Shown here: piece by piece, positions 699-28,812 of the stretch
How the letters are laid out: each line of letters starts with the position of its first letter
Numbering within the stretch: position 1 is the first letter of the stretch
DNA from: a virus
Strand: one strand, 5' to 3'
Length of the DNA: 36,100 bases
Virus record (IMG/VR): IMGVR_UViG_3300033997_000117
Location: 1-36,100 of that record
The notes under the pieces: model-generated
The model's database searches: none
The model's input: the letters and a program-made list of their open reading frames with translations, nothing else
Told to the model about the DNA's origin: nothing
Program-made: the position numbers and the translations under genes

Positions 699-2414
699 TT
701 ACAGCTCTGGCGCGTTTGTGAACAGGATCGCGTAGCCGTTGTTGGCGGAGATAAACACCAGCCGATCATCGCCATCCGCAACTGCGTTCCAAGAGGACAT
801 GAACGCCAGCGGGCTTCCGTCAGAAGCAACATCGACAACCTTCGTCCAAGCCCTGCCGTCGACGCTGGTATAGAGCCCGTACATGCTGATCAGCACGAAC
901 ATGCCAAGGCGGGAGGCATACACCACTTTCCCGTTGCCCTTGTTGTATCCGTTAGAACTTGGGGCCGGGAGGTTGATCGTCTCCCAGCTGGTGCCGTCGA
1001 AACGGCGAACAGTCGCGCCAATGCCATGAACGACTACAGCACGAGCGATGGGGCTATACGCTGGCGCCTCACTCACCGCGGCGCCACTGCCCATATTGAG
1101 GCCAGTATCGGTCCACGTAAGTGCGTCTGGGGATGTGGCAATGTTGTATGACGTGTTCACCGCAACCCACAAACCGGCCTCGGGGAACCAGCGAGCCGGC
1201 GAGGCCGAGTAGTCCATCTTCTGCCCGGCCAGGCCCGGAGTCCATGCCCCTGCGTATCCGGACGAGGCGTAGCTCCCTCCCATAGCAATGCACTTCCCAT
1301 TGCCGTACGACAAATTGCGGTATGCGTCCGCAGTATCGGGGGCGATCGTCGTCATTACATCAGGTGCCGACTCGAACACCATACGGGTACCGATCAGCCC
1401 CAAGAGCGCACCGGTATCCGTGTTGACGGCGCACGCCTCGTAATCAGCAGTCGAGGCAACCGTCCAGGTGACGCCATCCGCAGACGTCTGTCGGGTCGTT
1501 TTGCACGCGTGGAACTTCTTGCCAAGCCGGCTATAGGCCACCTGACCGATCTGGAAGCCCGAGCTGCTGGCAAGCGAGCCTTGGCGAACCACCCCGGTGA
1601 TATTCACCTTCTGGCAGGTGATGACACCGACCCACAGATACGAGCGACCAATGGAATCGCTGACCAGCAGCGAGACCTGGAAGGTCTTCTCGATGTTGAG
1701 CCCGGCCGCTGCGACCGTGTGATCCCACTCGAAGTCGTCGACGAACAGGATCTTGTTCTGCCGATACCGGATGCCGTTCGCCGCAATGTTGATGGTAGCC
1801 GCCCCGTCCGGGGCAGCTGCTGCCACGTTCGAATCGTAGACCCTGTTCTTGCTCGCGGACATGACCCGGTTTCCCTCCGGGGCCGAGATAACCTCGCCTG
1901 CTGCATTCCGGTACTCGAGCATGACGGATGCGCCGGCATTGCCCTCGGACGAGGCGCCCTGGCGCACCTTGCACTTCGCCTTGGTCACCTGCCCCGGAAA
2001 CACCGAGTAGCGAGCGTTGCTCGAAATGCGGGATTCGCCCCAGTTGTTGTAGTAGCCGGCTGCCCACGAACCACTCGGCGGGTTTTCAGTAGCGATCTTC
2101 CAGCCATTGCCCCCAGTCCATCCGGTGTCGCCGGACTCGAAGCCCGGATTCGGAATTGGTGCCTCACCGGGAAGGTAGGCCGGCCAGGTGACCACTACCT
2201 GTTTCGTTGCCTGGTCTACCGAGACCTGAGTGCCTTCCGGCAGGCGGTCGCCATCGATCTGGCGCACGGCGCAGTCGCCGATCCCGTTGACGATCTGCAG
2301 CCGGCCCTCATAGGCCATGAACGGCTCGGCAAAGGCAAACTTGCCCGTGACGAACAGGACAGGACGGGGCTGCTGCTGGTCGAGATCCGGGCGATCGTAG
2401 ATACGCGCGGTCAT
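699..2414 (-). CDS. Putative receptor-binding tail protein with propeller-like repeats
   Basis: The 571-residue product starts at the ATG two bases after the stop of the tail-fibre gene; the longer open frame upstream is out-of-frame overlap. Residues ~85-235 look like a carbohydrate-binding type beta-sandwich (NPGFESGDTGWTGG at its start). The C-terminal half carries three related segments near residues 310, 426 and 516 of the form TS-DG-(T/A)WT, as in BNR/sialidase-like beta-propellers. Together with its place after the T7-type fibre, this suggests the distal adhesin that contacts the host surface. No catalytic residues for a depolymerase are evident. Specific ligand unknown. Confidence 0.75.
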   Translation of the reverse strand: MTARIYDRPDLDQQQPRPVLFVTGKFAFAEPFMAYEGRLQIVNGIGDCAVRQIDGDRLPEGTQVSVDQATKQVVVTWPAYLPGEAPIPNPGFESGDTGWTGGNGWKIATENPPSGSWAAGYYNNWGESRISSNARYSVFPGQVTKAKCKVRQGASSEGNAGASVMLEYRNAAGEVISAPEGNRVMSASKNRVYDSNVAAAAPDGAATINIAANGIRYRQNKILFVDDFEWDHTVAAAGLNIEKTFQVSLLVSDSIGRSYLWVGVITCQKVNITGVVRQGSLASSSGFQIGQVAYSRLGKKFHACKTTRQTSADGVTWTVASTADYEACAVNTDTGALLGLIGTRMVFESAPDVMTTIAPDTADAYRNLSYGNGKCIAMGGSYASSGYAGAWTPGLAGQKMDYSASPARWFPEAGLWVAVNTSYNIATSPDALTWTDTGLNMGSGAAVSEAPAYSPIARAVVVHGIGATVRRFDGTSWETINLPAPSSNGYNKGNGKVVYASRLGMFVLISMYGLYTSVDGRAWTKVVDVASDGSPLAFMSSWNAVADGDDRLVFISANNGYAILFTNAPEL

Positions 2415-2415
2415 G

Positions 2416-3960
2416 TCAGCTGGCCCTCTGGCCGACCAGGTAGACCCGCAGGCCCTTGGCCAGGGCCGTACCCACCTGGTCCACGTCGATGCTGATCTCG
2501 TCTCCCTTGGCCAATACGTTGCCACCCGGCACCAGCACCGGTGGGATGGCCGCCGTCATGGTGGTGCGCTCGTTGTTGTCAAAGGTCAGCTTGGTCGACA
2601 GGATGCTGGTGCCGTTTCGGTTCACATCAACCGTGAGTACGACGCCGGCAGCCTGGGCGACGGCGAGCGTGGCATAGATGCCGCCGTTGGCCACGGTATC
2701 CAGCAACAGCCCGTAGGGCAGGATCAGGCTGTCCTTCCCGGTCCCGGTCCCGATGTTGGTTCCGATCAGCACAGATCGATCGACCAGGTCGAAGCACTGA
2801 AGATCGGGGGCGGACGCAATCCGCGACAGGTCACCTGCAGCCACCCACGCGTCGGCGTCAGGCGCAAGGCAGGTGCCGCTGATGATGCAGCCCTGTGCAC
2901 GGGTCTTGGCCTGGAAGCTCGGCGGCACGGTGAGCGGTCCACCGCCCTCGACGGCGAGCGTCACCTGGCCGGCGCCCACCTGCAATACCGAGAAGAACTG
3001 GCCTTCCTTCCAGTCGGCGCTGCCGCCGGTGTTCGCCCGCACGGTGAGCGTGATCGGCGTGGCCGAGTTGGCCAAGATCAGGGTGTTGTGCATGTCCCCG
3101 GCCAGCGTGGTGTTGCCGGTGACGCTGACGATCCGCGGCGCAACCGTGTAGACCGGCGGTTCACCGATCCACGGCCTGGCGTAGCCGCGCAGGGTCGTGA
3201 AGCCACGCACGCCATCGCCGAGGGGCGGGTTAAAGCGGATGGCCGGCGGCGCCCCTTCGGTGCCTGGCACGATCAGGAACTCACCTACCCCATCCGCGTC
3301 GACCGGGCGGGACACCTTGTAGTTGCCGGCACCCGCAGTGATCTCGACTGCGGTGTCGTAGAACAGCGGACTCAGAACATCGGCGCCAGCCAAGGGGAAG
3401 TCGGTCACTTCGCCATCGCCAGTGAACGTCCAGAGCTTCGGGGACACGCCGACGGTGCCGCCACCGTTCTGGATCTGCTCGATCAGCACGAGCGCGGTGC
3501 GCTTGTTCAGGGCGTCGGCATCGGCAATGGCGTCGCCAACGCGCACGATGCGGTTGTTCTTCGCATCCCACACCATGTCGCCGCTGCCATCGGGATCCGG
3601 TACCAGCAGCATCGCGTCCGCCGCGATCTGCTGGATCATCATCACCGGCGCATCCTGGTCCTCGTTGAGGGTCTGCGCCAGCAGGTCGCCAAGGTTCTCG
3701 TAGTTGATCACCCGGACCAGTGGCATATTCCGGTGCAGCACCACCTTGGCATTTGCTGCAGGCGGGGCCACGAACACGACATTGCCGCCGGCTGGATTGC
3801 CCACACCCTCGACGGTGTAGTGCGTGCCCAGGGTTCGGACAAGGCCGTTAACGGTGACCCGAATGTGGGCCGCCTCGAGGATGCGGAAGCTGTAGGGGAA
3901 CACCGTCGTCACGCCGTTGGCGATCGAGGTGTTGGGGCCGGTGTAGGCGGGGACGGTCAT
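2416..3960 (-). CDS. Tail fibre protein with T7-type N-terminal anchor domain
   Basis: The 514-residue protein opens with a phage T7 tail-fibre N-terminal domain: residues ~5-115, including YTGPNTSIANGVTTVFPYSF, a beta-rich first half and a helix with NYENLGDLLAQTLNEDQ. In T7 this domain attaches the fibre trimer to the tail tube. The rest (about 190-514) is beta-rich, with no recognised enzyme signature. The gene follows Rz1 after ~60 nt, and a copy of the repeated 20-bp late motif lies just upstream, so it probably begins its own transcription unit together with the next gene. The C-terminal part could be a short spike rather than a fibre shaft. Confidence 0.85.
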   Translation of the reverse strand: MTVPAYTGPNTSIANGVTTVFPYSFRILEAAHIRVTVNGLVRTLGTHYTVEGVGNPAGGNVVFVAPPAANAKVVLHRNMPLVRVINYENLGDLLAQTLNEDQDAPVMMIQQIAADAMLLVPDPDGSGDMVWDAKNNRIVRVGDAIADADALNKRTALVLIEQIQNGGGTVGVSPKLWTFTGDGEVTDFPLAGADVLSPLFYDTAVEITAGAGNYKVSRPVDADGVGEFLIVPGTEGAPPAIRFNPPLGDGVRGFTTLRGYARPWIGEPPVYTVAPRIVSVTGNTTLAGDMHNTLILANSATPITLTVRANTGGSADWKEGQFFSVLQVGAGQVTLAVEGGGPLTVPPSFQAKTRAQGCIISGTCLAPDADAWVAAGDLSRIASAPDLQCFDLVDRSVLIGTNIGTGTGKDSLILPYGLLLDTVANGGIYATLAVAQAAGVVLTVDVNRNGTSILSTKLTFDNNERTTMTAAIPPVLVPGGNVLAKGDEISIDVDQVGTALAKGLRVYLVGQRAS

Positions 3961-7345: not shown

Positions 7346-9796
7346 TCACTCTCCCGCTGCAGCTGCGACGTTGGGCGCACGCTCTGGCACGGCCTCGCCC
7401 GGTTCCCACCAGTATTGCTGGTTCCAGTCCTTCTGCGCGCGCTTGCGCATGCGTCGCAGATACCCCGGACTCAGCTGCTCCTGCAGGTCATGGAACACCA
7501 TGTGGTCGGTGGCGCCGCGGAGATACCACAGGTTGATGAAGGGGGTGTTCCCCTTTGCGAACCGCAGCGCCTCGGCGCCCAGGTCGTCCAGCTTGTCGTC
7601 GGCCTTGTTTTCGTCGGCGATCGCCCAGCCAGCGCCCTTGCGCGCGATGCTGAAACCATCCATCGCGGTGCCGAACACCGGGCCGAGCATCGACGTCCAG
7701 TTGGCCTGGCCGCCGCGGCTGTCGCCGCCCATGCCGGTGTAGAGAATGTCGCCGAAGATGCCCAGCCCGCCGCCCTGCGCAGCCGCCGCCAGCCAGAATT
7801 TCCCGGTCGTCATGTCGCGCGGATCTTTGCCGTCGCGCAGATCCTTCAGCTGCAGCGCCACCGCACCGAACAGCTGCAGGCTCGTCAGCATCGCCGCGCT
7901 GTAGGCGACCTTACCCTGTGTGGTCGGGATGTTGCGCAGCCTACGCAGGTGCTTGTCGACGATCGCCAGCGGGAACGCCTTAAACAGCATCAGGGATCGC
8001 AGCGCTTCACCGCCCAGCGTACCGGCCTTGGTTCCCTGCTGCAGGCTCGCGCGGGTGGTCAGGTCCGGCGCCAGGATCGCAGTGCGGGCCTCACTGTCCA
8101 GGTAGCCCAGCAGCCGAGCGGTGGCCCGGTTCAGATCCGCCTCGCTGGCGTCGACGGCGCGGATACCGTCCTTGGTCAGCATGCCGTCCTGTGCCGGCGC
8201 CTGCTGCCAGATCTTCCAATCGGCCTCAGTTACGCCGGCTGAAGCCATGCGACGGAGTGAGCCCTCATCGAGATCAGCCCATGCTGTCTGCCGATTCCGT
8301 TCAAGAACGCGCGACAGAATCAGCGCGTACCCGCGGCGCAGGCTGTTGGTCCAGCCTTCAACGAGGGTCAGCTTCATGGTGCTGTTGGCCAGTTTCGCCG
8401 ACCACCCCTGCGCGAGGTTGTCCTGATGCCAGCGGGTCATTTCCCCGGCGATCTCGTCCATGCCGATGGCCAGGTCGTGCGCCATGTCCCGCTTTCCCTT
8501 CCCGAACCCGGAGAACAGCGACTTCATCGCGCCCCCCGTCGGCACACCGGCGGAACGGGCGACCAGCACCTGCAGCGGGGCGTCGGTGATTGAGGACAGC
8601 ATCACGCTCTGCAGCTTCGCCGCCACGGTGAAGTTGCGCACGCCCTGGAAGAACTGCGCCATCGCTGGGCTTACTGGCTGTGCGGTCACGCCCGTGAGCG
8701 TGTCCCAGGTCATGTCGAGGGTCGCCAGCTCGTGCCAGGCCGCGCGGGCGCCGGTCACGTTGTCGGCCTTCTCGGCAGTGTCCTTCAGCAGACGATAGGT
8801 GCTGTTCGGGTTGGCGCCGAACTCTTCCATCAAGCCGATGTTCTTGGCCATGCCGCCGACGTGGCCCAGGATCGCGTCCATCATCGAGCCGCGGCCGAAG
8901 TCGGCCAGGTAATCCAGATGGCTGTCGGCGTCCTTGAAGTGCAGCACGCGGTGCGCGTCGTCGAACCGGCTGGCGCGCGATCCCTGTCCGACAGCGCCAG
9001 GCACGCGCTTGTTGCGGCCCTCGGTGGCAATCGTGTCGTATGCCTTGCGCAGCAGGTCCAGCACCTCGGCATCGCCCATGGCCTCGCCGTCCTCGCGCAG
9101 GTACTGCTCGCGGCGCAGGCGCGGGAACACGTAGTCGACCCACGCATCCTTGCCGGCCTTGGCGATGCGACCCACGTCGTGCGGCTGCGGCAGGTAGCCG
9201 TAGTCGAGCCGGCCAATGTCGGTACCGGCAGCGTTCGAGCGTAGGCGCATGTCCTCGAGCGCGGCGATGTACGTGGCCGCGGCCTTGGCCATCTTCGGGT
9301 CGCTGGTGTCACCGTCGACCACCGCGCGGGCGAAGGCTCGAACCGAATCCGGGTCGTGCATCAGGCCCAGGAACTTCGGTTCCACTGCCTGCACAGCATC
9401 GACCAGCTCCGACAGGTACTCGTTGCGCACGCCGGAAACGTAGTCGTCTGCCTGGCGCATACGCTCGAACAGCGCGGAATGCTGCGGGTTCTTCGCTCCC
9501 TGGGCGGCCAGCTGCGCCGCACGCGCGGCCTGACGCTCAGTTTCCCGAACCTGCGCCGTCAGCCGCGATGCCCGGCGGAACGCGGCCTTCTCAGCATCTG
9601 CGATGGCCTCAGCCTGCGCGGCCTCCGCTGCACGCTGCAGGCGCTGCTCGTGCGACAACGTGCGCCACTGGTCATCGGTGCGCGCCAGCTGGCGCATGTG
9701 CCTGGCCAGATCCGTCTCGATCCGGGCCACTTCGGTGGTGGTGGGCTCGCGGCCAATGGCGGCGGCCACTTCTTGAACGCATGCAGGCTGCATCAT
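7346..9796 (-). CDS. Large inner-core (ejection) virion protein
   Basis: The 816-residue protein starts at one of two adjacent ATGs; the second (9793) has the better spacing to GGAGG. Residues ~30-110 form a long charged coiled coil (EQRLQRAAEAAQAEAIADAEKAAFRRAS), followed by mixed helical regions. Gly/Ala-rich, hydrophobic stretches appear late (~655-690, SAAMLTSLQLFGAVALQL and FWLAAAAQGGGLGIFG). It stands last in a run of four virion proteins, in the place occupied by the largest internal core protein of T7-like phages. Such proteins leave the head with the DNA and help form the trans-envelope channel. No enzymatic motif seen. Confidence 0.75.
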   Translation of the reverse strand: MMQPACVQEVAAAIGREPTTTEVARIETDLARHMRQLARTDDQWRTLSHEQRLQRAAEAAQAEAIADAEKAAFRRASRLTAQVRETERQAARAAQLAAQGAKNPQHSALFERMRQADDYVSGVRNEYLSELVDAVQAVEPKFLGLMHDPDSVRAFARAVVDGDTSDPKMAKAAATYIAALEDMRLRSNAAGTDIGRLDYGYLPQPHDVGRIAKAGKDAWVDYVFPRLRREQYLREDGEAMGDAEVLDLLRKAYDTIATEGRNKRVPGAVGQGSRASRFDDAHRVLHFKDADSHLDYLADFGRGSMMDAILGHVGGMAKNIGLMEEFGANPNSTYRLLKDTAEKADNVTGARAAWHELATLDMTWDTLTGVTAQPVSPAMAQFFQGVRNFTVAAKLQSVMLSSITDAPLQVLVARSAGVPTGGAMKSLFSGFGKGKRDMAHDLAIGMDEIAGEMTRWHQDNLAQGWSAKLANSTMKLTLVEGWTNSLRRGYALILSRVLERNRQTAWADLDEGSLRRMASAGVTEADWKIWQQAPAQDGMLTKDGIRAVDASEADLNRATARLLGYLDSEARTAILAPDLTTRASLQQGTKAGTLGGEALRSLMLFKAFPLAIVDKHLRRLRNIPTTQGKVAYSAAMLTSLQLFGAVALQLKDLRDGKDPRDMTTGKFWLAAAAQGGGLGIFGDILYTGMGGDSRGGQANWTSMLGPVFGTAMDGFSIARKGAGWAIADENKADDKLDDLGAEALRFAKGNTPFINLWYLRGATDHMVFHDLQEQLSPGYLRRMRKRAQKDWNQQYWWEPGEAVPERAPNVAAAAGE

Positions 9797-12399
9797 CCCC
9801 TCCGCAGGAAGCAGTTGACGGCCGCCTGGAAGGCGGTGGCATCGGTGGTTGCTCGGGCCAGATCGGCCTCGATATCGGCGAACTCGTCAGCGACAGTGCG
9901 GTGCACAGCGCCGCCATCGGCATCGGCGCCGACTACGATCGAGGCATCAGGGTTTTGCGCCGCCAGCTGTCGGGCGGCATCGAGAGGCGTTTCGGGAGCG
10001 GGGGTTACTTCGCCGCGGCTGCCGGCTTCGCGGCCAGGCGAGCCTTGCGCTCGGCCTTGGCTTGGGCCATTTCCAGCCCGATCTCCCGCCAGCGCTGCTG
10101 GTGCGCCGCGTCCAGGGCCGCTGAATCCTCGGTAGAGGTCTTCTGCGAGTCCGCCGGTACGGGCTTGGTCGAGGGCGTCTTGGAGGCTGCCATGGAGACT
10201 ATCTTCCTCCACTCGGGGGAGGCTTGCAAGATCGACAACTTTCTGCTTGCCCTTGCCCTGGCTGTTGTCGATGGCGGTCACCTTCACGCGGGGGTCGTCC
10301 GCATAGCGAGCCGCGATCGCTTCGATGGTCGGCCGGACGCCGGAATGAGTCCTGGCATGCTCCCGCAGGGGCACGGTACGGCCAGAGCCGAAGCGCTCGG
10401 CCTGGCGCTGAGCGCGGGGGATAGCCCCGTTGACCAGGGCGTCTACCGGATCCCGGTACACATAGACGATATCCACATCACGGCCGGCGGCCAGGGCCTG
10501 CTCGATCTTGTCCACCGCTGAGGACAGGGTGTTCATGTTGGTGTCGTAGATGATCTCCGGCTTCCCGATGGAGTCGCCCAACGCCCTCATGCCTGTGGTT
10601 TTGCCAGCCCCGGTGCCGCCGGCGGTGAACATCACAGTCGAATCGAAGCCATCTGGGGTGGGCTGGGCTAGTTTCTGCTCGTAGAGCAGCTTGATGGTGT
10701 CGCTGGCCGCCTCGTGCACGTCGGCGCTGCGAGTGCGGTCGGCCAGGTATTCCGGCGACAGCTCGCGGGCGGTGTCAGTGTTCAGCACCCGGCCGCCGTC
10801 GGACTCTTCCAGAGCGGCGTATTCGCGGAGCAGCTTGTCCGGGTTGCTCACCAGGCGCTCGCGCAGGGCCTGCCCGGCCGGGTTGGTGTCGACCGGCCCA
10901 CCGTCAGGCAGCACGCCGGCGCGCTTGGCGCGCTGGTTCCAATTGGCGATAGCCTCGTCCTTGGTCAGGCCCCGCAGGTAGGGATTGGCCTCGAGCTGCC
11001 CACGGCTCAGGATCCGCTCCATCGGGGTGGCACCGTCGGAGCGGGCGAAGCGCCGGCCACCGGCCAGGCCGAAGTGATGCGCGGCGTACAGGGTGTAGGC
11101 GTCGACCGGCAGCCCCTCCGCCTGCAATCCTGCGGTGTTCTCGGCATCGAGCGCCGCCACCATTTCCGTAGAGCGCGCCGGATCCGTTCGCATCGCCAGC
11201 AGCTGCGCGTCGTCCAACCCCTGCGCCCATTCCGGCTTGGTCTTGGCCACCATTCGGCGCCAGGTGCCGGCGGTGAACTGGTCGATGCCCAGCGCGGTGG
11301 ATTCGGGGTTGCGCGCGTTGGCCTGGCCACCGGATTCAAGCGCCCGACGGAATGCCGAGTAGCCGGCCAACGACGTCGCGGGAGCATCGGCGGTATCGCC
11401 CAGAGGCAACAGGAAGTCCGACGGCCGGATGGTGTCGACCACGTTCACCGGCTCGCCGCGCGCCAGCTGCTCGAGGGCATCCTGCAGCGCGTCCTGGCCA
11501 CGGATGGCCGCGCCCTCGTCTGCCACCAGCGGGTCGGTGGCAGTGCGCTGGAAGCGGTCGGCGTTGCGCGCGGTCAGCAGCGCATCGCGCTGATCGAGCG
11601 GGACGCGCGGGGCCATGGCATGGGCGAGCGCACCGAATGCCACACCGGTCAGCAGGTCGACCGTGCGCGCCTCCGCATCGAGCGGATCGAAGGCTTTGGC
11701 CTGTTCGTCGTTGCCGCCGGCCTTCAGCGCCGCGTACTGCGCGCCGGACATGCCCGCTCCCAGCAGCAGGTTGCCGGCCGCACCGGTGGCCAGCCGCTGG
11801 GTGAGCGTGGATCCGAACGCTGCCGGCAGCTTGAACCCTGCCAGCGTGCCCACCGAACCGGCCAGGCCAACCGCCTGTGCAGTGCCTGCGCCGACGCCCT
11901 GCTTGACCAGTGACGCCGGCCGCTCGAGGCCTTCATTCGCGGCCAGCAGTGCTGGATTGCCGCCAGCCGCTGCCAGCGGCAGCACGATCTCGGCCAAGCC
12001 ACCCAACACTCGCCCAGCGGTGCCGGTTTCGGTGGGGTCCGGCGTCCATGCGTCGACTGCGCGCTGTCCGATCCCCTCCACCACGTCGGCGAAATAGGCA
12101 TCCTGGCCTGCCGTGGTGGCGCCGCGCGCAGGGTTGGCCACGCCCTGCGCCTGCAGGAAGTCGGCCACGTCGTCGGTCATGAAGGATGAAAGGTAGTCGT
12201 CACGTGCCACCACCGGCACCGCGCCGGCAGTCAGCACAGCGGTGCCGGTTCGGGCACCGCCGCGCATGGTGCCGCTGAAAACGGACGAACCCAGGCCTTC
12301 GAAGAACCCGGGCTTCATCTTCGACAGGTCCAGGGGATTGGCCACCGCCTGTTCGTCGAGCTGCTTGCGGCCCTGCTCGTCCAGATCGAAAACGCTCAT
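9793..12399 (-). CDS. Ejection protein with transglycosylase-like and zeta-toxin-like kinase domains
   Basis: The 868-residue protein has, in order: an Ala/Gly-rich helical N-terminus (~1-260); a lytic-transglycosylase-like region at ~345-450 with candidate catalytic Glu355 (ALESGG) and GIDQFTAGTW; and a P-loop domain at ~586-715. The P-loop domain has Walker A GGTGAGKTT (594-602), then IIYDTNMN, a strand VDIVYVYRDP, and the sequence GSGRTVPLREHARTH. This layout fits zeta toxin/UDP-GlcNAc kinase-type enzymes. A low-complexity linker (~745-800) and a C-terminal segment ending CFLRRG follow. It overlaps both neighbouring virion genes by ATGA, so it should be packaged. The peptidoglycan domain would aid DNA entry; delivery of a kinase into the cell is inference. 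Confidence 0.83.
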   Translation of the reverse strand: MSVFDLDEQGRKQLDEQAVANPLDLSKMKPGFFEGLGSSVFSGTMRGGARTGTAVLTAGAVPVVARDDYLSSFMTDDVADFLQAQGVANPARGATTAGQDAYFADVVEGIGQRAVDAWTPDPTETGTAGRVLGGLAEIVLPLAAAGGNPALLAANEGLERPASLVKQGVGAGTAQAVGLAGSVGTLAGFKLPAAFGSTLTQRLATGAAGNLLLGAGMSGAQYAALKAGGNDEQAKAFDPLDAEARTVDLLTGVAFGALAHAMAPRVPLDQRDALLTARNADRFQRTATDPLVADEGAAIRGQDALQDALEQLARGEPVNVVDTIRPSDFLLPLGDTADAPATSLAGYSAFRRALESGGQANARNPESTALGIDQFTAGTWRRMVAKTKPEWAQGLDDAQLLAMRTDPARSTEMVAALDAENTAGLQAEGLPVDAYTLYAAHHFGLAGGRRFARSDGATPMERILSRGQLEANPYLRGLTKDEAIANWNQRAKRAGVLPDGGPVDTNPAGQALRERLVSNPDKLLREYAALEESDGGRVLNTDTARELSPEYLADRTRSADVHEAASDTIKLLYEQKLAQPTPDGFDSTVMFTAGGTGAGKTTGMRALGDSIGKPEIIYDTNMNTLSSAVDKIEQALAAGRDVDIVYVYRDPVDALVNGAIPRAQRQAERFGSGRTVPLREHARTHSGVRPTIEAIAARYADDPRVKVTAIDNSQGKGKQKVVDLASLPRVEEDSLHGSLQDALDQARTGGLAEDLYRGFSGPGRGAPAALAGDRAGNGPSQGRAQGSPGREAGSRGEVTPAPETPLDAARQLAAQNPDASIVVGADADGGAVHRTVADEFADIEADLARATTDATAFQAAVNCFLRRG
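10005..10193 (-). CDS. Candidate nested gene inside the zeta-like protein gene
   Basis: A 62-codon frame from ATG to TAA lies inside the larger gene, in another frame. GGAGGAAG precedes the ATG, at somewhat long spacing. The product is hydrophilic, opening MAASKTPSTKPVPADSQ and ending in a basic Ala/Lys helix (EMAQAKAERKARLAAK). By my hand count about 85% of its third codon positions are G or C, against roughly 55% for the host gene's frame over the same bases. In a GC-rich genome that favours this frame as the one under codon selection here. No family recognised. An antitoxin to the adjoining kinase is an attractive but unproven idea. Confidence 0.42.
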   Translation of the reverse strand: MAASKTPSTKPVPADSQKTSTEDSAALDAAHQQRWREIGLEMAQAKAERKARLAAKPAAAAK

Positions 12400-14474
12400 C
12401 GGCCGCTCCCGGTGATGGTGATGGTCAGGGGCTTGCCGTCCTTGGTGGTCAGGAACTCGCGCCCCCGGGTCACGTAGTAGGTGCGTTCGCTCTGCTGCCG
12501 CAGGCCGTACTTGCTGAAGCCACCGACCACGGCATCAGGCAGACCGGCCGCCTTCGCTGACTCGGTGAATGCCTGCTCCGCCTGGTCTTCGAAGGTGTCC
12601 GAGCCCATGCCCCACGGGGCCAGCACCTCACCCCGCCCGTTGACGTCGACGACCTCCCCGAGCGATGCCGTGATCGCCTTCTTCATGCGATCGCTGTTGA
12701 CCTCGGCCGAGTGATCACCGTCGGCTGCCGACTGACCGGTGTAGAACGCGCGCACGGCCTGCATGGCCAGGTCCGCAGCACCTGGACGGCCAGCAAACAG
12801 CGCGCCCGTGTCGCGGGTGAACTGGTCGCGGAACTCCTTTTCCGGTGGCAGCGGGAACTTGGAATCGCCCTTGCCCTGCAGCAGGCGGTTGCCCTCGAGC
12901 ATGGTGGCGGCAACGTCCCGACCGTTGGCCGCCTCGTCCGCCTTGAACAGGTGCTTCTGCAGCGTCACCTGCGCACGCTCTCGCGTGGCCAGCATGCCGG
13001 CATAGGCGACCACCGGCTGTTCCGGTGCCAGCTGCTTCATGGCGGCGTTGAACACCTTGTCATCCATCGTCGCCGTGCGCAGCTGCGACAGCATTTCTGC
13101 CTGCTGCCGGCTCGTCCCCTGCTTCAGCTGCTCACCGAGCGCCTGCACCTCCTGCGGCAGCAACACAGCCATCTGCACCTGCGTGCCGTAGCGCTTACGC
13201 ATGCCATCGATCGTGGCGGCGCGGTTCTGCAGTTGCGCGCCCACCTCCCACGCATCGGCCGGGTTGGCCAGCGCAGCCAGGTTCAGGGGCTCCACCTCCC
13301 CGCCCTCGCGCGAGGCATTGAACAGCAGCGGCGCCTCGTCCAGCTGCTTCTGCGCCGCCTCGATCGCCGAGCGCGTGCGCGCCAGGTTTTCCTTGCGCTG
13401 CACGGTGCCGCCGGCGGTGGCCAGTTCGGCCTCGGCCTTCTGCAGATAGGTCTGCTGCTGGGCCGTCGGCATGCGCAGCACCTTCTGGACCTCCTTTTCC
13501 TCGGACACGCGCTGTTCGAACTCCGCGCGCACGTCGGGGCTGGCCCCTTGCATCGAGTCAGCCCAGGCCGTCCACATTTCCGGCGTGGCCGGTACGGCGC
13601 TGGCGATCTGGCGATCGATCTGCCCCAGCACGCGCTGCGCCTTCGCGTCGATGCGGTCGGCTGCACGCTCAGCCCGGTCCACCAGCGTCTGCTGCCGGGT
13701 CATCACCTGCGACAGCAGCGCATTGCGCTTCTCGGGATCCAGCTTGTCGGCATAGAACCCGTCGCTGCTGGACAGATCCGTTTCCAGCGTCTTCAATCCA
13801 GCCGGATCCTCACGGTTGAAGATGGCACGTTGGGTGGCCTGCGACGTCCAGGTGCGGTCGTAGAAGTCCTGCAGGGCCTTGCCCACCGCCGCATCGCTCA
13901 GACCTGCCTGCTTGGCCAGTGGCGCGAACGCTGCTGCGCGCTGGTTGACCGCGGCGATATCGGCGCCGGGCATGCCGGCGATCTTGCCGAGTTTGTCCAG
14001 GGCAGCGTCGAACTGCCCGCGGAAATCGGCGCGCTTGGCCGTGCGCGCCACCCGATCGACGCCCAGCTGCCCGGCGGTGACCGTGCGCTGCAGGCCGCGG
14101 TCGTAGGCCAGCTGCAAATCGGGGGTGAGCCCGGCAACGGCCGGCTTTTCGATCTTGCCGACGGCCTCCTGGTAGCGGCTGGGCGCTTCGGCATACGGCA
14201 CCGTGCCGGTGGCCACGTCGTCCTCGAGCTTGCGCTGGACGTCGCCCACCTGCAGCTCGTAGTCGAGCTGGGCGTTCGCCGCCTTCGCGCGCGCCAGGCC
14301 CTCATCCTCCCGTGCTTCCTCGGCGGCCATGGATGCGCCAAGCTGCGCGGCCACACCGCCAAGCTGTCCCACCGCCTGCGCCACCTCCCCTACCCCCGCG
14401 CCACTGACACGGGAGCGAACCAGCGGTGCGGTGCCACCGCCCAGGCCGAACTGACCGATATCGATGCGTGCCAT
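12396..14474 (-). CDS. Inner-core virion protein, T7 gp15-like position
   Basis: The 692-residue protein is almost entirely helical, with long charged Gln/Ala/Glu-rich coiled-coil segments (for example ~265-330 and ~330-380). It has no membrane segment and no catalytic motif. It starts two bases after the stop of the gp14-like gene and overlaps the next gene by ATGA. Size, composition and order (14-like, then 15-like, then transglycosylase-bearing protein) match the internal core stack of T7-like virions, which is ejected to extend the tail through the periplasm. The assignment is by synteny and composition. Confidence 0.78.
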   Translation of the reverse strand: MARIDIGQFGLGGGTAPLVRSRVSGAGVGEVAQAVGQLGGVAAQLGASMAAEEAREDEGLARAKAANAQLDYELQVGDVQRKLEDDVATGTVPYAEAPSRYQEAVGKIEKPAVAGLTPDLQLAYDRGLQRTVTAGQLGVDRVARTAKRADFRGQFDAALDKLGKIAGMPGADIAAVNQRAAAFAPLAKQAGLSDAAVGKALQDFYDRTWTSQATQRAIFNREDPAGLKTLETDLSSSDGFYADKLDPEKRNALLSQVMTRQQTLVDRAERAADRIDAKAQRVLGQIDRQIASAVPATPEMWTAWADSMQGASPDVRAEFEQRVSEEKEVQKVLRMPTAQQQTYLQKAEAELATAGGTVQRKENLARTRSAIEAAQKQLDEAPLLFNASREGGEVEPLNLAALANPADAWEVGAQLQNRAATIDGMRKRYGTQVQMAVLLPQEVQALGEQLKQGTSRQQAEMLSQLRTATMDDKVFNAAMKQLAPEQPVVAYAGMLATRERAQVTLQKHLFKADEAANGRDVAATMLEGNRLLQGKGDSKFPLPPEKEFRDQFTRDTGALFAGRPGAADLAMQAVRAFYTGQSAADGDHSAEVNSDRMKKAITASLGEVVDVNGRGEVLAPWGMGSDTFEDQAEQAFTESAKAAGLPDAVVGGFSKYGLRQQSERTYYVTRGREFLTTKDGKPLTITITGSGR

Positions 14475-14475
14475 A

Positions 14476-14958
14476 TCAGCGGCCCCCGCTCAGATTGCTG
14501 GTGCGCTTCCAGCCGCGGGCGATGCTCGAGCCGGTGCTGAGCAGGGACGACCCTGCATTGATGTAGCCGGCGGTCCGCGCCTGCTGGCCGGCATAGCGTG
14601 CGCCGGCACCCTCGGCATCGAGCCGCGCGGCGCGATCGTTGCCGCCAGTCAGGGTCAGGAACGCGTCTTCGGAAGCGCCGCGGGAGATCTCTTCGTCGAT
14701 CTTCAGCGCGGTGGAGCTATTCACGTCGACACCGGATGCGGCCAGCGCTGCCACCGCTTCGCTGCGCTGTCGCTTCGATGCTTTCAGGATGCGCTCGGCT
14801 TCCACCTGCGCGGCCCCGCGCTCGGCGCGCGAGTCGGCCTCTGCCTGCGCCGCCAGGTAGTTGTTGTATTTGCTCTGTTGCTCGCCCTGATAGACGGCGG
14901 CGCCAGCAGTGAGCGCCAGGGCGCCCCATTGGATGATTGGGATCGCGGCAACACCCAT
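14476..14958 (-). CDS. Internal virion protein, T7 gp14-like
   Basis: The 160-residue protein begins with a hydrophobic helix (IIQWGALALTAGAAVYQG, ~8-25). A long charged helix (YNNYLAAQAEADSRAERGAAQVEAERILKASKRQR) follows, then a Gly/Ser/Ala-rich C-terminus. Short Ala-rich proteins of this pattern precede the large core proteins in many podoviruses and form an outer-membrane pore after ejection in T7. GGAG lies 9 bases before the ATG. Confidence 0.8.
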   Translation of the reverse strand: MGVAAIPIIQWGALALTAGAAVYQGEQQSKYNNYLAAQAEADSRAERGAAQVEAERILKASKRQRSEAVAALAASGVDVNSSTALKIDEEISRGASEDAFLTLTGGNDRAARLDAEGAGARYAGQQARTAGYINAGSSLLSTGSSIARGWKRTSNLSGGR

Positions 14959-14961
14959 GGG

Positions 14962-15408
14962 TCAGTCTCCTTCGTACTCGAAAACAATGCCGGTGCGGCG
15001 GAAGCCCAGCTTTTCGTACAGCTGGGCCGTGCGGTCAGTGGTCACCCCGGTGGTGACGCCCACCTGGATCAGATCGGCGCCCTGCTCCTTCGCCCAGGCG
15101 CAGAAGGCGCGCACCAGCCCTGCGGCCAGCGCAGCGCCCCGGGCGCCGGGCTCGACGAACACGCCGTATTCGCCAGCCACCTTCGCGGGGGTGAACCAGC
15201 TCTCTTCGCAGTAGCCCGCCATGACGCCGACCACGCGGTCGGCCTGCTCGGCCACCAGCACCACGCCGGCGCCGTCCATCAGGCCCTGAAACAGGCGCGC
15301 CATCTTGTCGATGGCGAAGGGATACCGACGGTAGTCCGATTCGGCGTGCATCTGCTCCGCCAGGATCAGTAGCGCGCCCATGTCGTCGTCGGTTGCGAAC
15401 CGGATCAT
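14962..15408 (-). CDS. GNAT-family acetyltransferase-like virion-module protein
   Basis: The 148-residue protein has the GNAT fold signature: an N-terminal MIRFATDDDMGALLILAEQM, a strand VVLVAEQADRVVGVMAG, the acetyl-CoA loop region GVFVEPGARGAALAAGLVRAF, and the C-terminal AQLYEKLGFRRTG. It overlaps the tail tubular B gene and precedes the gp14-like gene, the position of T7 gp13. GNAT-like proteins are recurrent there in podoviruses; their substrate is not established. It may be an assembly factor, or it may modify a virion or host protein. The pyrophosphate-binding loop is recognisable but not the canonical QxxGxG/A. Confidence 0.85.
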   Translation of the reverse strand: MIRFATDDDMGALLILAEQMHAESDYRRYPFAIDKMARLFQGLMDGAGVVLVAEQADRVVGVMAGYCEESWFTPAKVAGEYGVFVEPGARGAALAAGLVRAFCAWAKEQGADLIQVGVTTGVTTDRTAQLYEKLGFRRTGIVFEYEGD

Positions 15409-17612
15409 TTGTTCACCGTCATGGTTGTAATCACTGCCTGCAGGTGGAAGGGATACGGCTGCGGCTGGGTGATCTCCATGCGGAAGTCGCCCAGCTCCCA
15501 GCCCAGCTGTTCAATGCGCTGATCGCCGGTCAGCAGCGGCGGCGGCTGGTCCAGCACGCCGAGGCCGGTTTGGCGCGCAAACATCACCTGGTCATTGACG
15601 ACCAGGCCTGTGGAGTTGAGGACGCGCACCACGATCTCGGAAACGCGGATGTTGCTGCTCTGCGCCGATCCCGAATCGCTGTACATTTCCGGGCGCAGCA
15701 GCTTCACGCGGGGCGAGTAGCCCAGCCCGATCTCGATCTGCTTGGCCGGCCGATCGATGGTGATCTGCCCACCGGTCACGACACGGTCATTCAGCACTAC
15801 GCCGTCGGCCTTGACCTTGACCGTCTTCCCCTCGAGGTGCCCCAGGCCAAGCCAGGTGGTGTCGCCGGCCACGCTGGTGGCGGTGACACAGGAATCCGTC
15901 ATCACGTCGCGGTCGAAGCGCTCGACATAGCGCCTTTCCACACCGTTGATGATTCGGCTGACGATCGCCCACACCTGATCACCATCTTCCAGCGGCAGCG
16001 TGGCCACGGCGATGAACCGCCCGTCGGTGATCTGCCTCGACCAGCCAACCACTTCCTGGTCGCGGTCTAGCGCGCAGGTTGCCAGCTGGCCGTCGGTGCG
16101 GACGCAATGCAGCAGCGAGTCCGGCTCGGCCTCGTAGGCGCTGCCGGTGATGCCGCCGACCGTCATGTGATCGGCCAGCACAGTCAGCTCGGGGGCGCCG
16201 TACTGCGCGGTGTCGATGCGGTCGGCCGACAGTGCGCGCAGCTTGCGGTTGGCGCGCTGGGTAAACACCAGCTCCCGGCCCACGCGCTCGGGCGAGACGT
16301 CGCCGCAGCCAAAGCTGGACTGGTTGCGGATCTGCACGTTCGTGGGCGTGATCGGCTTGTCCAGGCTGCCCTGCAGGGTGAACTCGCCGCCATTGGTCAG
16401 CGCCACGAGGGCGTTTACCTGGGTCAGGTGCCGGATCAGGTTCTGCCGGTCGCTGGCCAGGTCGAACGACACCGCATCGTCGTCGTTGGTGCCCAACTCG
16501 AAGTTGAGGTATTCCCCGATGCGTGAGCCCCACACGGTCTGCGGGAAGGCGCGCGAGCCGGCCAGCCACAGGCGCTGCTCGAAGAACGTTCCCGTGCCCG
16601 GGTAGCCGTTGCGGCCGCCCCACACCGTGCCCTTCAGCACCCACGCCAGCGCCGGCACCGCAACCAACGCGGTGAGCGCACGCCGCACCGTCGCCGTGGC
16701 CACCGTCGACGAGGTGACAGCATCGATCTGCACGAGCCCGGCATTCAGTTCGACCCACTTGCCCACGTCCACTGAGCGCCAGCCTGGCGCGTCCAGGGTC
16801 AAGGTCACCGATGCACCCACCGGCGGCAGGTCGGTACCGGTACCGCCCGGATAGGTTGGGGTCAGCACGGCCAGCGGGCTGCCGGTGATCACCCACTGCC
16901 CAGCGGCGATGGTCAGGGACGGGAATGGCGTCTGAGTGTCTACCGTGGCCGTGGTCGCGCTGGTTACCGCGGTGATGACGGCCAGGCCGCCAAGGCCTTC
17001 GATCTCGCGGCCAACGTCCGCAGCCAGGAACGCCGCACCGCTGGTGGTGACGGTGCGCCCCGGGCCAAGAGCCAGGCTGTCCAGCGTCATGCTCTCCGGC
17101 GGGGCATAGCCCACCTCGCCGAAGGGCTCTTCCACCCACGGCACCGCTTCGAGGATCCATGAGGCATCGCCGAAACGGCGCAGGCGCCGAGTCACGTAGC
17201 CAGTGTGGAACAGGAACATCGTGTCCCCGCTCTGCACGTAGTCGATGGCTGACAGATCAGCCTCGGCATAGTCGGTGGCGATTTCGAAAGGCACGAACAC
17301 GCCCGGGGTCGATTCCACCAGCACCTCGGCGCCGTTCTGTAGGAACACTCGGATATAGGCGTCCCCTACTTCCAGCATGTAAGCCTGCGAGCGGTTGAAC
17401 ACGTAGGGGATCAGCTCGGCATACTTATCCTCATGCTTCGCTGGTGCGCTGTGGCGCAGGCCTGGCCGGCGCTGCACGCCGCCCTGCACCATGATGATGA
17501 CGTTCTCGAGGATCTCCGCCGCATTGCGGTAGCGGTCGATATCGCTGCGCCCGTAGAGCTTCGGGCTGATCTCGCCGGCGGTGAAGTTGGTTTGAGCGGG
17601 GGTCAGGCGCAT
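15405..17612 (-). CDS. Tail tubular protein B-like (tail tube nozzle)
   Basis: The 735-residue protein starts at the ATG three bases after the stop of the tubular A gene; an upstream extension of the open frame is Arg-rich out-of-frame overlap. The N-terminus has the typical signature FTAGEISPKLYGRSDIDRYRNAAEILENV followed by GGVQRRPGLR, shared by podoviral nozzle or 'stabilisation' proteins. The rest is beta-rich. With tubular protein A it makes the short tail through which DNA exits and to which fibres attach. Confidence 0.92.
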   Translation of the reverse strand: MRLTPAQTNFTAGEISPKLYGRSDIDRYRNAAEILENVIIMVQGGVQRRPGLRHSAPAKHEDKYAELIPYVFNRSQAYMLEVGDAYIRVFLQNGAEVLVESTPGVFVPFEIATDYAEADLSAIDYVQSGDTMFLFHTGYVTRRLRRFGDASWILEAVPWVEEPFGEVGYAPPESMTLDSLALGPGRTVTTSGAAFLAADVGREIEGLGGLAVITAVTSATTATVDTQTPFPSLTIAAGQWVITGSPLAVLTPTYPGGTGTDLPPVGASVTLTLDAPGWRSVDVGKWVELNAGLVQIDAVTSSTVATATVRRALTALVAVPALAWVLKGTVWGGRNGYPGTGTFFEQRLWLAGSRAFPQTVWGSRIGEYLNFELGTNDDDAVSFDLASDRQNLIRHLTQVNALVALTNGGEFTLQGSLDKPITPTNVQIRNQSSFGCGDVSPERVGRELVFTQRANRKLRALSADRIDTAQYGAPELTVLADHMTVGGITGSAYEAEPDSLLHCVRTDGQLATCALDRDQEVVGWSRQITDGRFIAVATLPLEDGDQVWAIVSRIINGVERRYVERFDRDVMTDSCVTATSVAGDTTWLGLGHLEGKTVKVKADGVVLNDRVVTGGQITIDRPAKQIEIGLGYSPRVKLLRPEMYSDSGSAQSSNIRVSEIVVRVLNSTGLVVNDQVMFARQTGLGVLDQPPPLLTGDQRIEQLGWELGDFRMEITQPQPYPFHLQAVITTMTVNK

Positions 17613-17614
17613 GG

Positions 17615-18205
17615 TCAGCCCCTCATCCGGCTCTGCAGCAGCGGGAAGTCGCCGAACGTCTCCGGCGGGTCGTCCTGGCCATCGGTGGCCCTGGCCTCGC
17701 GCAGCAGGTCGCGCAGCTCGATCTTCTTGGCTTCCTCCACGCTGGTGCTGGCGGTGATCGGGTACGCCAGGCGCGCAGCCATTGCGACCGTCATCACGTC
17801 CACCAACAGCGTGTCCCACTGGTCTTCGGGAACATCGGCGCCGTAGTGCAGCGGCAGCACCGGCTCGTCGCACAACAGGTAACGCCCTTCGCTGCGGTAG
17901 TCGATGCGGCCCCGGGTGTTGCGGTCGCCTACGCCCCAGGTGCGCAGCCAGTCGCCCGGCAGCAGGAAGCGGTAGGCGTAGCCGAAGGCCGGCTTCTGCT
18001 CGTCCGGCGACAACAGCACGCGGCGCGCGCAGGTGTTCCAGTAGTGGCCGCGCAGGATGGCCAGCCGCAGGCCCGGGTACAGACCGGCGCAGAGCTTGGC
18101 TCGGTCGAGGTTGGAGCCCATGCCTTCGGACTCGCTGAAGCTGGCGATCGGCTTTGCGCCGAGCATCATCAGCGCGTTGGAGCAGATCTTGATGGGGTCA
18201 GTCAT
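17615..18205 (-). CDS. Tail tubular protein A-like (adaptor)
   Basis: The 196-residue protein begins MTDPIKICSNALMMLGAKPI and continues with AKLCAGLYPGLRLAILRGHYWNTCARR. This matches the T7 gp11 family, which forms the ring joining portal and tail nozzle. Its start lies only 15 bases from the T tract of a strong terminator, leaving no room for a separate promoter. Expression of this and all genes down to the lysis region must therefore rely on readthrough (inference). GAGGG lies about 9 bases upstream of the ATG. Confidence 0.9.
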   Translation of the reverse strand: MTDPIKICSNALMMLGAKPIASFSESEGMGSNLDRAKLCAGLYPGLRLAILRGHYWNTCARRVLLSPDEQKPAFGYAYRFLLPGDWLRTWGVGDRNTRGRIDYRSEGRYLLCDEPVLPLHYGADVPEDQWDTLLVDVMTVAMAARLAYPITASTSVEEAKKIELRDLLREARATDGQDDPPETFGDFPLLQSRMRG

Positions 18206-27880: not shown

Positions 27881-28242
27881 CAGGCGGACCTCAGCATCCC
27901 CGCCAGGCGCGCAATCTCCGAGCGCGGGTCGGGCTGTTCCAGGGCCGCCTGCAGGTCCATGTACTGGCGGATGAGATTCGAGCCGGTGGCGGCGCACAGC
28001 GACAGCACCAGGCGGGCCGGGATAGGCCGTTCACCGGTGCGCATGCGCGACACGTAGCTTTCCGACTTGCCAACGGCCGCGGCGATCGTCGCCAGCTTGT
28101 GGCCACCGGCCTGCATCGATACCGCCAGGGCCTGAGCGGCCGATTCGATCTGGCGGAGCAGCTTCTGCGGGGCATCCTTCGGCGCGCTGTGCACACCGAA
28201 TACAAGGCGGAGGTTGTCCTGTTGCTTGCCAATGCTTTCCAT
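27880..28242 (-). CDS. HTH protein in the replication operon, CII-like position
   Basis: The 120-residue protein starts MESIGKQQDNLRLVFGVHS; the upstream extension lacks a ribosome site. It contains a helix-turn-helix (LATIAAAVGKSESYVSRMRTG) followed by PARLVLSLCAATGSNLIRQY. It lies between the Cro-like gene and the replication initiator, the place of cII in lambdoid phages. A role as activator of repressor or integrase promoters is possible. Confidence is moderate for DNA binding and low for CII function. Confidence 0.72.
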   Translation of the reverse strand: MESIGKQQDNLRLVFGVHSAPKDAPQKLLRQIESAAQALAVSMQAGGHKLATIAAAVGKSESYVSRMRTGERPIPARLVLSLCAATGSNLIRQYMDLQAALEQPDPRSEIARLAGMLRSA

Positions 28243-28315
28243 GATTTGCCTTTTATTGCCAAGGGTTTGCGGGCGAAAAAGAAGGCCTCTCAGATGGAAG
28301 CCTTGAATGCCCAGG

Positions 28316-28504
28316 TCAGTTCGTAAGCCGCGATCCAACGTCGTGGATCTGAAATTCCAGTGGATCAGCGGGAAGTGCTTCGCCCTCATCCGTCAGGGTC
28401 GAAGGGTCGATGTGCGCCCATACCCCCGTAAGCGCCGTGAGCCACCGCTGCCCGGCACGGGCACCGTGGTGCCCTTCCCCGCCAAGGCGCGGTGAGGTGG
28501 TCAC
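28316..28504 (-). CDS. Possible small gene between cro-like and cII-like genes
   Basis: A GTG two bases after the Cro-like stop opens a 62-codon frame with CAGG nearby. The middle looks protein-like (RWLTALTGVWAHIDPSTLTDEG, DPLEFQIHDVGSRL). By hand count about two thirds of third positions are G/C, lower than in its neighbours. The opposite strand has an equally long ATG frame (28307-28495) ending VVPFPAKAR, with slightly better third-position GC. Operon direction favours this strand. Only one of the two is probably real. Confidence 0.42.
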   Translation of the reverse strand: MTTSPRLGGEGHHGARAGQRWLTALTGVWAHIDPSTLTDEGEALPADPLEFQIHDVGSRLTN

Positions 28505-28505
28505 G

Positions 28506-28742
28506 TCAGCCTGCCGTTTCTTGCGTTGCTTCTTCCGGCCACAGGTCAGGGCGCAGTGACTGACGTCGTACGGCCCCCTCCGTAGCGCGCTCGATTTCAA
28601 CCACGCGCTCGGCGGGGATCGTTGCCCCCTTCTCCCATTGGGAGACAAGACCCTGCGTGGCGGGTGAACCCGATGCCGTCAGCAGATCGGCGAAAGCCGA
28701 CTGCGACAGCCCCTTTTCTCGTCGGTAGGTGGCGATGTCCAT
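28506..28742 (-). CDS. Cro-like repressor (XRE/YdaS type)
   Basis: The chosen start is MDIATYRREKG, giving 78 residues; an ATG three codons upstream is possible but would lie inside the predicted -10 box. A single HTH domain is seen: EKGLSQSAFADLLTASGSPATQGLVSQWEKG. An Arg-rich RRQSLRPDLWPEE follows. It is transcribed divergently from the S24 repressor and is the first gene of the replication operon. By analogy with Cro it should bind the same operators and favour lytic growth. The predicted transcript would begin at or within a few bases of the ATG. Confidence 0.87.
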   Translation of the reverse strand: MDIATYRREKGLSQSAFADLLTASGSPATQGLVSQWEKGATIPAERVVEIERATEGAVRRQSLRPDLWPEEATQETAG

Positions 28743-28750
28743 GGGCGTCA

Positions 28751-28779: not shown

Positions 28780-28792
28780 TAGCGCCCCTCAT
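28778..28792. promoter_or_regulatory. Operator O2 (AATAGCGCCCCTCAT)
   Basis: Same 15-bp motif as O1 with two changes. It overlaps the -35 of the leftward promoter, just as O4 overlaps the -35 of the rightward promoter. Confidence 0.7.
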
Positions 28793-28812
28793 GGATTACT
28801 GAACCCGCCGCA

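What the first reader, a model, noticed from the sequence alone, without database searches (positions are those of the whole stretch)
10255..10644. Zeta-toxin-like kinase domain built into a virion ejection protein
The 868-residue protein has a transglycosylase-like segment (Glu355) and then a P-loop domain with Walker A GGTGAGKTT and a downstream layout like zeta toxins and UDP-GlcNAc kinases. Zeta enzymes phosphorylate UDP-N-acetylglucosamine and poison wall synthesis. Its operon position (gp13-, gp14- and gp15-like genes just upstream) implies that it enters the cell with the DNA. A phage could then interfere with wall precursors, or with a competing phage's or host's metabolism, from the first minute. 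One polypeptide joining wall cutting and wall-precursor kinase activity is a striking design.
Basis: partly seen in the sequence, partly recalled or inferred. Interest (0 to 1): 0.85.

Follow-up and report, generated by a model that had tools for sequence, protein, structure and literature searches.

The report
Wall-precursor kinase inside phage injection protein
A short-tailed bacterial virus appears to carry, inside one of the proteins it pushes into its host along with its DNA, an enzyme domain built like a bacterial toxin that spoils cell-wall building blocks, and relatives of this virus carry other enzymes in the same slot.

Summary
The 868-aa protein (9793-12399, minus) has a gp144-like lytic transglycosylase (Glu355) and a complete zeta-type kinase domain (about residues 500-765). 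It is not the classic UDP-GlcNAc 3'-kinase type: it belongs with the circularly permuted ng_zeta1 subclass (structure Z 26.7, 2.5 A over 249 residues), a UDP-MurNAc/UDP-sugar 4'-kinase. The catalytic Asp (D542) lies before the P-loop. D542, K600, R662 and R674 are invariant in 48 of 48 relatives; two substrate contacts differ (K59 to R, N75 to S). The protein is the positional and sequence homologue of epsilon15 gp16, in a conserved ejection operon. An N-terminal module and a C-terminal 'CFLR' tail frame a variable slot: permuted zeta, canonical zeta, GGDEF, PBECR3 nuclease, ART-like, or almost nothing. Best reading: the protein is ejected, the transglycosylase acts in the periplasm, and the kinase phosphorylates UDP-sugars in the cytoplasm. 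Substrate, virion presence and timing are inferred. Zeta-like kinases in phage-injected proteins were proposed in 2017 (PMC5512222), so this is a new variant of a known kind.

The parts
9793..12399 (-). 868-aa ejection-type protein, epsilon15 gp16 homologue
   Evidence: ORF; phmmer to epsilon15 gp16 5e-17 and same gene order; phrog_1145 4.8e-34
11410..12399 (-). N-terminal helical delivery module, residues 1-330
   Evidence: phrog_1145; profile found in epsilon15 gp16, phiV10 p19, BcepC6B gp16, YeP5; all-helical, low-confidence model
10921..11367 (-). gp144-like lytic transglycosylase, residues 345-493, Glu355 at 11335-11337
   Evidence: phrog_4067 and PDB 3bkh match; Foldseek 3bkh rmsd 2.8 A over 125 columns, but E 0.09
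10105..10902 (-). permuted zeta-type kinase domain, residues 500-765
   Evidence: AF2 pLDDT 93.6; VIA-align Z 26.7 to 6eph_B, 2.5 A, 249 aligned; profile E 2.9e-20
10774..10776 (-). D542, equivalent of catalytic Asp56 of ng_zeta1, before the P-loop
   Evidence: alignment; invariant 48 of 48
10597..10620 (-). Walker A GGTGAGKT, residues 594-601, Lys600 = ng_zeta1 Lys115
10378..10416 (-). R662 to R674, equivalents of ng_zeta1 Arg175 and Arg181 (phosphate patch)
   Evidence: profile alignment; each invariant 48 of 48
9796..9990 (-). C-terminal tail, residues 804-868, ends AAVNCFLRRG
   Evidence: tail profile found in 76 of 76 complete relatives from the N-terminal scan
7346..9796 (-). 816-aa virion structural protein, epsilon15 gp17 homologue
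   Evidence: phrog_684 2.8e-203; phmmer 1.8e-66 to epsilon15 gp17
12396..14474 (-). 692-aa protein, epsilon15 gp15 homologue
   Evidence: phrog_992; phmmer 6e-16
14476..14958 (-). 160-aa internal virion protein, epsilon15 gp14 homologue
   Evidence: phrog_418 internal virion protein; phmmer 8.5e-7
14962..15408 (-). GNAT acetyltransferase in the epsilon15 gp13 position
   Evidence: Pfam Acetyltransf_1 9e-12; YeP5 homologue 3e-37
15405..17873 (-). tail tube/nozzle protein, epsilon15 gp12 homologue
   Evidence: phrog_376; phmmer 6.8e-90

Best explanation
The protein is the gp16-type ejection protein of an epsilon15-like, probably temperate, podovirus. Its N-terminal helices and C-terminal tail place it in the virion core and bring it through the envelope (inferred from homologues). 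The transglycosylase opens peptidoglycan in the periplasm, and the permuted zeta domain reaches the cytoplasm, where D542 and K600 transfer phosphate from ATP to a UDP-activated sugar, probably UDP-MurNAc or a related UDP-sugar, at the 4' hydroxyl. Phosphorylated precursors are dead ends for Mur enzymes, so wall (and perhaps LPS) synthesis stalls locally or briefly around DNA entry. Shown here: the fold, the subclass, conserved active-site residues, purifying selection, operon position and homology to epsilon15 gp16, slot swapping. Inferred: virion presence, cytoplasmic delivery, substrate, biological purpose.
For: Model of the domain overlays ng_zeta1 at Z 26.7, 2.5 A, 249 residues; next best Z 11.4. 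D542, K600, R662, R674 invariant in 48 of 48. dN/dS of the domain 0.09-0.27 in 7 of 7 comparisons with the window, against 0.39-1.34 for the linker in the 5 of 7 where it is defined. Operon matches epsilon15, phiV10, BcepC6B and YeP5. Literature: ng_zeta1 chemistry (PMC5923241, Results parts 1-2); epsilon15 injection device said to include gp15 and gp17/16 (PMC12391199, passage); T7 gp16 spans periplasm to cytoplasm (PMC8954989, passages); zeta-like kinases fused to MuF in phages (PMC5512222, section 25).
Against: No biochemistry. K59 and N75 of ng_zeta1, the contacts to the lactoyl group of UDP-MurNAc, are R (47 of 48) and S (42 of 48) here. AvrRxo1 shows that a zeta-like fold can use NAD instead (PMC5087710, title and abstract start in the listing, passages). 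Relatives work with little or nothing in the slot (YeP5 430 aa; 57 of 80 loci with a slot under 200 aa), so the domain is not needed for ejection. The one standalone copy whose neighbourhood was annotated (L063) sits by packaging genes with no sign of virion delivery. The N-terminal module model is low confidence. A review credits the epsilon15 core to gp17 alone (PMC5850374, passage).
Confidence: 0.55

Rival explanations
1. The kinase acts late in the cell that makes the phage, not in the next host: bulk late expression drains wall precursors and helps lysis, and packaging of the domain is incidental.
For: It lies among structural genes; genes on both sides overlap it by 4 bases, so no separate antitoxin gene stands between them. 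A few ejected copies with UDP-GlcNAc-type turnover (1.7 per s) would be too slow to matter. ng_zeta1 expression lyses E. coli within 30 min (PMC5923241). The standalone copy in L063 lies just upstream of terminase genes.
Against: The domain is repeatedly placed inside the ejection protein between conserved delivery parts, and other slot contents are known effectors of polyvalent proteins (PMC5512222). A separate Rz-like spanin gene is present, so the phage has its own lysis gene.
Confidence: 0.2
2. It is an injected kinase but its substrate is not a UDP-sugar, for example NAD (as in AvrRxo1) or a nucleotide, serving host takeover or counter-defence.
For: Substrate contacts K59 and N75 are not kept; AvrRxo1 and classical zeta score alike as second-best folds, Z 11.4; AvrRxo1 lacks the UDP-GlcNAc motif and forms 3'-NADP (PMC5087710).
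Against: Sequence and structure are much closer to ng_zeta1 (profile 2.9e-20, Z 26.7); Asp56, R175 and R181 equivalents invariant.
Confidence: 0.2
3. The domain is a structural or regulatory remnant without catalysis.
For: Relatives lack it without losing the rest of the operon.
Against: Catalytic residues invariant 48 of 48, strong purifying selection, intact frame.
Confidence: 0.05

Closest known systems
ng_zeta1 toxin of Neisseria gonorrhoeae (PDB 6EPG/6EPH/6EPI)
   Same: Permuted zeta topology with catalytic Asp before the P-loop; Asp56, Lys115, Arg175, Arg181 equivalents; fold Z 26.7
   Different: Here inside a phage ejection protein, no adjacent antitoxin gene, no OB domain matched; K59 is R and N75 is S
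Polyvalent proteins with zeta-toxin-like kinase (Iyer et al. 2017, PMC5512222)
   Same: Zeta-like kinase in a multi-domain protein thought to be injected; wall weakening proposed; relatives of this domain occur with LPD22, InPase, LPD38, ddrB-ParB
   Different: The paper's passage names MuF fusions and conjugative elements; here the carrier is an epsilon15 gp16-type podoviral ejection protein with a transglycosylase, and the kinase is the permuted subclass
Epsilon15 gp16 (and phiV10 p19, BcepC6B gp16, YeP5 28101-29393)
   Same: Gene position, N-terminal module, C-terminal tail
   Different: No zeta domain and no gp144-like transglycosylase; BcepC6B gp16 has an SLT domain instead
T7 gp16
   Same: Ejection protein joining a transglycosylase to a part that reaches the cytoplasm (PMC8954989)
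   Different: T7 transglycosylase is N-terminal and the C-terminal part binds DNA (same source); sequence homology to T7 gp16 was not tested

Membership tests
permuted zeta (ng_zeta1) UDP-sugar 4'-kinase subclass | kinase fold of ng_zeta1 | tested here: met
   Z 26.7, rmsd 2.5 A, 249 aligned, 15 Z units above the next fold
permuted zeta (ng_zeta1) UDP-sugar 4'-kinase subclass | catalytic Asp before the P-loop; Lys115, Arg175, Arg181 equivalents | tested here: met
   D542, K600, R662, R674, 48 of 48 each
permuted zeta (ng_zeta1) UDP-sugar 4'-kinase subclass | UDP-MurNAc contacts Lys59 and Asn75 | tested here: not met
   R in 47 of 48 and S in 42 of 48; so membership is claimed for fold and catalytic site, not for UDP-MurNAc preference
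permuted zeta (ng_zeta1) UDP-sugar 4'-kinase subclass | 4' phosphorylation of UDP-sugars | not testable with these tools
   needs an assay
canonical zeta / PezT UDP-GlcNAc 3'-kinase | linear order P-loop, then catalytic Asp block | tested here: not met
   Pfam match starts only at profile position 96, about 13 residues after K600, and the Asp block lies upstream
epsilon/zeta toxin-antitoxin system | antitoxin gene next to the toxin | tested here: not met
   4-base overlaps with both neighbours, which are epsilon15 gp15 and gp17 homologues; an antitoxin elsewhere or in an overlapping frame was not excluded
AvrRxo1-type NAD kinase | NAD 3' phosphorylation | not testable with these tools
   fold similarity Z 11.4 only
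epsilon15 gp16-type ejection protein | place in the gp12-gp17 operon and sequence homology | tested here: met
   phmmer 5e-17; N-module 1e-52 and tail 3.5e-13 on epsilon15 gp16
epsilon15 gp16-type ejection protein | presence in virions and ejection | not testable with these tools
   inferred from homologues and operon
gp144-like lytic transglycosylase | gp144 fold with catalytic Glu | tested here: met
   PDB 3bkh phmmer 4.3e-4; E355 opposite Glu115 (alignment shown for the gp144 chain 9xps_S); Foldseek prob 1.00, rmsd 2.8 A, though E 0.09
polyvalent protein | several disparate effector domains in one protein likely injected with DNA | tested here: inconclusive
   transglycosylase plus kinase in an ejection-type protein; injection itself not tested

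The most novel reading that the evidence does not exclude
The gp16 protein of epsilon15-like podoviruses is a delivery vehicle with an exchangeable effector slot, a short-tailed-phage counterpart of polymorphic toxins: a fixed N-terminal module and a fixed CFLR-type tail carry whichever enzyme the lineage has acquired (UDP-sugar kinase of two differently ordered zeta types, diguanylate-cyclase-like GGDEF, PBECR nuclease, ADP-ribosyltransferase-like) into the cytoplasm at the moment of DNA entry, before any phage gene is expressed.
Probability: 0.5. Interest if true: 0.72.

Novelty: new variant of a known kind. Interest (0 to 1): 0.52.

Why it matters
It names a specific, testable enzyme in a tractable class of phage, with known chemistry in its nearest relative and four predicted essential residues. 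It also points to a slot in podoviral ejection proteins where lineages exchange enzymes, so reading that slot in sequenced phages would be a direct way to list what short-tailed phages inject in the first seconds.

Tried and rejected
Classical UDP-GlcNAc 3'-kinase reading: rejected on topology. Defence-system reading: no PADLOC match at 0.01 for 6 of 6 proteins, window and relatives. Solved structure for the upstream 692-aa protein: no PDB match at E 1. tRNA genes in the window: none. Phage collection: the kinase domain matches 1 of 50,697 records at 1e-3, MW202577, there named thymidylate kinase. Literature: searches for zeta toxin with ejection protein, internal virion protein (19), polyvalent protein (16), virion and UDP-GlcNAc (67), ejection protein with GNAT and transglycosylase (62), polymorphic toxin with ejection proteins (92), MuF and polyvalent (101) showed, in listings and abstracts, no paper on this architecture beyond PMC5512222; only open-licence papers are held. 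Virion proteomics of epsilon15: two papers not held. In one search four rows cut at contig ends (L125, L126, L129, L130) were dropped before counting.

Full report
What is there. The minus-strand ORF 9793-12399 encodes 868 residues. Pfam finds Zeta_toxin at residues 614-707 (2.4e-9). PHROGs finds phrog_1145 over residues 1-329 and a transglycosylase family over 353-492. Against solved structures the best match is the Zeta_1 toxin of Neisseria gonorrhoeae (residues 518-649, 3.6e-5), then the phiKZ gp144 transglycosylase, where E355 faces Glu115.

Which zeta. The N. gonorrhoeae toxin ng_zeta1 is a permuted zeta enzyme: two sequence blocks have swapped place, so catalytic Asp56, Lys59 and Asn75 precede the P-loop Lys115, and Arg175 and Arg181 follow it; it phosphorylates UDP-MurNAc best, at the 4' hydroxyl (PMC5923241, Results parts 1 and 2). 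A profile of 48 relatives of the window domain (the window included) matches ng_zeta1 over 259 positions at 2.9e-20 and pairs Asp56 with D542, Lys115 with K600, Arg175 with R662 and Arg181 with R674. Each is invariant in 48 of 48 rows; the Lys59 position is R in 47 of 48 and the Asn75 position S in 42 of 48, A in 5, V in 1 (the pairing of Lys59 and Asn75 is read from the alignments). The AlphaFold2 model has mean pLDDT 93.6 and pTM 0.90. VIA-align gives Z 26.7, 2.5 A over 249 residues to 6eph_B; AvrRxo1 and classical zeta follow at Z 11.4. So fold and catalytic site are those of ng_zeta1, while two substrate contacts differ. That leaves the exact substrate open, and AvrRxo1 is a warning: a zeta-like fold that makes 3'-NADP (PMC5087710, title and abstract start in the listing, passages).

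Selection. Against 7 other copies, dN/dS of the kinase region is 0.09-0.27; the disordered linker behind it is 0.39-1.34 in the 5 of 7 comparisons where it can be computed. The kinase is kept under constraint.

The carrier. The gene order tail protein, GNAT, 160 aa, 692 aa, 868 aa, 816 aa is that of epsilon15 gp12-gp17, phiV10, BcepC6B and Yersinia phage YeP5. By phmmer the 868-aa protein matches epsilon15 gp16 at 5e-17, the 692 gp15 at 6e-16, the 816 gp17 at 1.8e-66, the 160 gp14 at 8.5e-7. The GNAT matches the YeP5 one but not epsilon15 gp13 at E 0.1. BcepC6B gp16 is found by the N-module and tail profiles but not by single-sequence phmmer at E 0.1. The window also has a CI-like repressor (28828-29553), so the phage is probably temperate; no integrase turned up among the proteins scanned. 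Reviews describe the ejection core of epsilon15 and of T7 (PMC5850374 passages, which credit the epsilon15 core to gp17; PMC12391199 passage, which names gp15 and gp17/16; PMC8954989 passages and figure/table section). No source seen here shows gp16 of epsilon15 in virions directly.

A slot. Starting from the N-terminal module alone, 80 loci were kept of 123 relatives. Of the 80: 11 have the permuted zeta domain, 1 a canonical zeta with a ddrB-ParB domain, 2 a GGDEF domain (one of the two below the Pfam cut-off), 1 PBECR3, 1 an ART-PolyVal match below its cut-off, 3 an unassigned slot of 200 aa or more, 57 a slot under 200 aa, and 4 are cut by contig ends; the C-terminal tail profile is found in 76 of 76 uncut proteins. 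Many of the 57 are near copies, L121 and L122 look like the same phage, and the 57 were not scanned with Pfam except L123 and L124. YeP5, epsilon15 and phiV10 have no Pfam domain at 0.01; BcepC6B has an SLT domain. On a tree of 37 N-terminal modules the permuted zeta label needs 8 changes, at least 5 forced by starred branches; rows came from both zeta-led and N-terminal-led scans, so frequencies are not fair samples, but L116 (another slot content) inside the window's clade and L144 (GGDEF) inside a zeta clade are clear swaps. The transglycosylase is likewise optional.

Elsewhere. A scan with the domain found 257 relatives in viral contigs, 80 kept. They occur as ejection proteins, as giant multi-domain proteins (with LPD22, Glucosaminidase, InPase, LPD38 or ddrB-ParB) and as about 300-aa standalone proteins; the one standalone neighbourhood annotated, L063, has NinB before it and terminase, portal, scaffold and major head genes after it. 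On the kinase tree the three contexts need 7 changes (L005, cut at its 5' end, was counted there as standalone by length, so the true number may be lower).

Mechanism. The kinase needs ATP and nucleotide sugars, so it must reach the cytoplasm, while the transglycosylase works in the periplasm; T7 gp16 is a precedent for one protein spanning both (PMC8954989). Rough arithmetic, an inference: 4-12 ejected copies at the UDP-MurNAc rate of ng_zeta1 (200 per s) would convert about 800-2400 molecules per s, near the wall-precursor flux of a growing cell (recalled, of order 1000-3000 per s); at its UDP-GlcNAc rate (1.7 per s) the effect would be trivial. So early action is plausible only with a fast substrate; otherwise late bulk expression is the better reading.

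Novelty. PMC5512222 (section 25, read; passages) already proposed that zeta-toxin-like kinases fused to MuF and in conjugative elements weaken the wall during delivery, and lists GGDEF and PBECR as polyvalent effectors. New here, as far as the searches show: the epsilon15 gp16 carrier, the permuted subclass with its active-site map, the transglycosylase pairing, and the slot framed by a conserved tail.

Noticed in passing
L144:7653-9809 and L131:7578-10211: Same ejection-protein frame with a GGDEF domain in the slot (GGDEF and GGDEL motifs); Pfam 2.3e-11 and 6.4e-4 (the latter below cut-off). A possibly phage-injected diguanylate-cyclase-like enzyme.
   Followed up: partly
L139:7929-11489: Canonical Zeta_toxin (2.2e-31) plus ddrB-ParB in the same slot: a second, differently ordered zeta type in the same carrier.
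   Followed up: partly
L134:3037-5085 and L127:1-2253: PBECR3 nuclease (3.7e-22) and an ART-PolyVal match (1.4e-5, below cut-off) in the same slot.
   Followed up: no
L116:7755-10418, L117:7944-10418: Close relatives of the window protein with the transglycosylase but an unassigned domain of about 250 aa in place of the kinase.
   Followed up: partly
14962-15408: GNAT acetyltransferase in the internal-virion-protein position of epsilon15 gp13; possibly another ejected enzyme.
   Followed up: no
9811-9813 and tails of 76 relatives: Conserved C-terminal AA-x-CFLR-type tail with a near-invariant Cys, kept whatever the slot holds; function unknown, perhaps docking to another core protein.
   Followed up: partly
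L027, L028, L029, L031, L032: Diverged standalone relatives (30-39% identity) in Acidobacteria genomes and MAGs.
   Followed up: no
BFVD A0A2R8FDL0 (Brazilian cedratvirus): A giant-virus protein of 279 aa has a similar predicted fold (TM 0.77, E 8.7e-15).
   Followed up: no
L192:5099-7735 (MW202577): Annotated thymidylate kinase, but its C-terminal part matches this kinase family over 80% of the domain at 33% identity; likely a misannotation.
   Followed up: partly
PMC8954989 Table 1 versus NC_004775: The epsilon15 row of that table (gp11, gp12, gp13; 229, 499, 708 aa) does not fit the sizes in the epsilon15 record.
   Followed up: no
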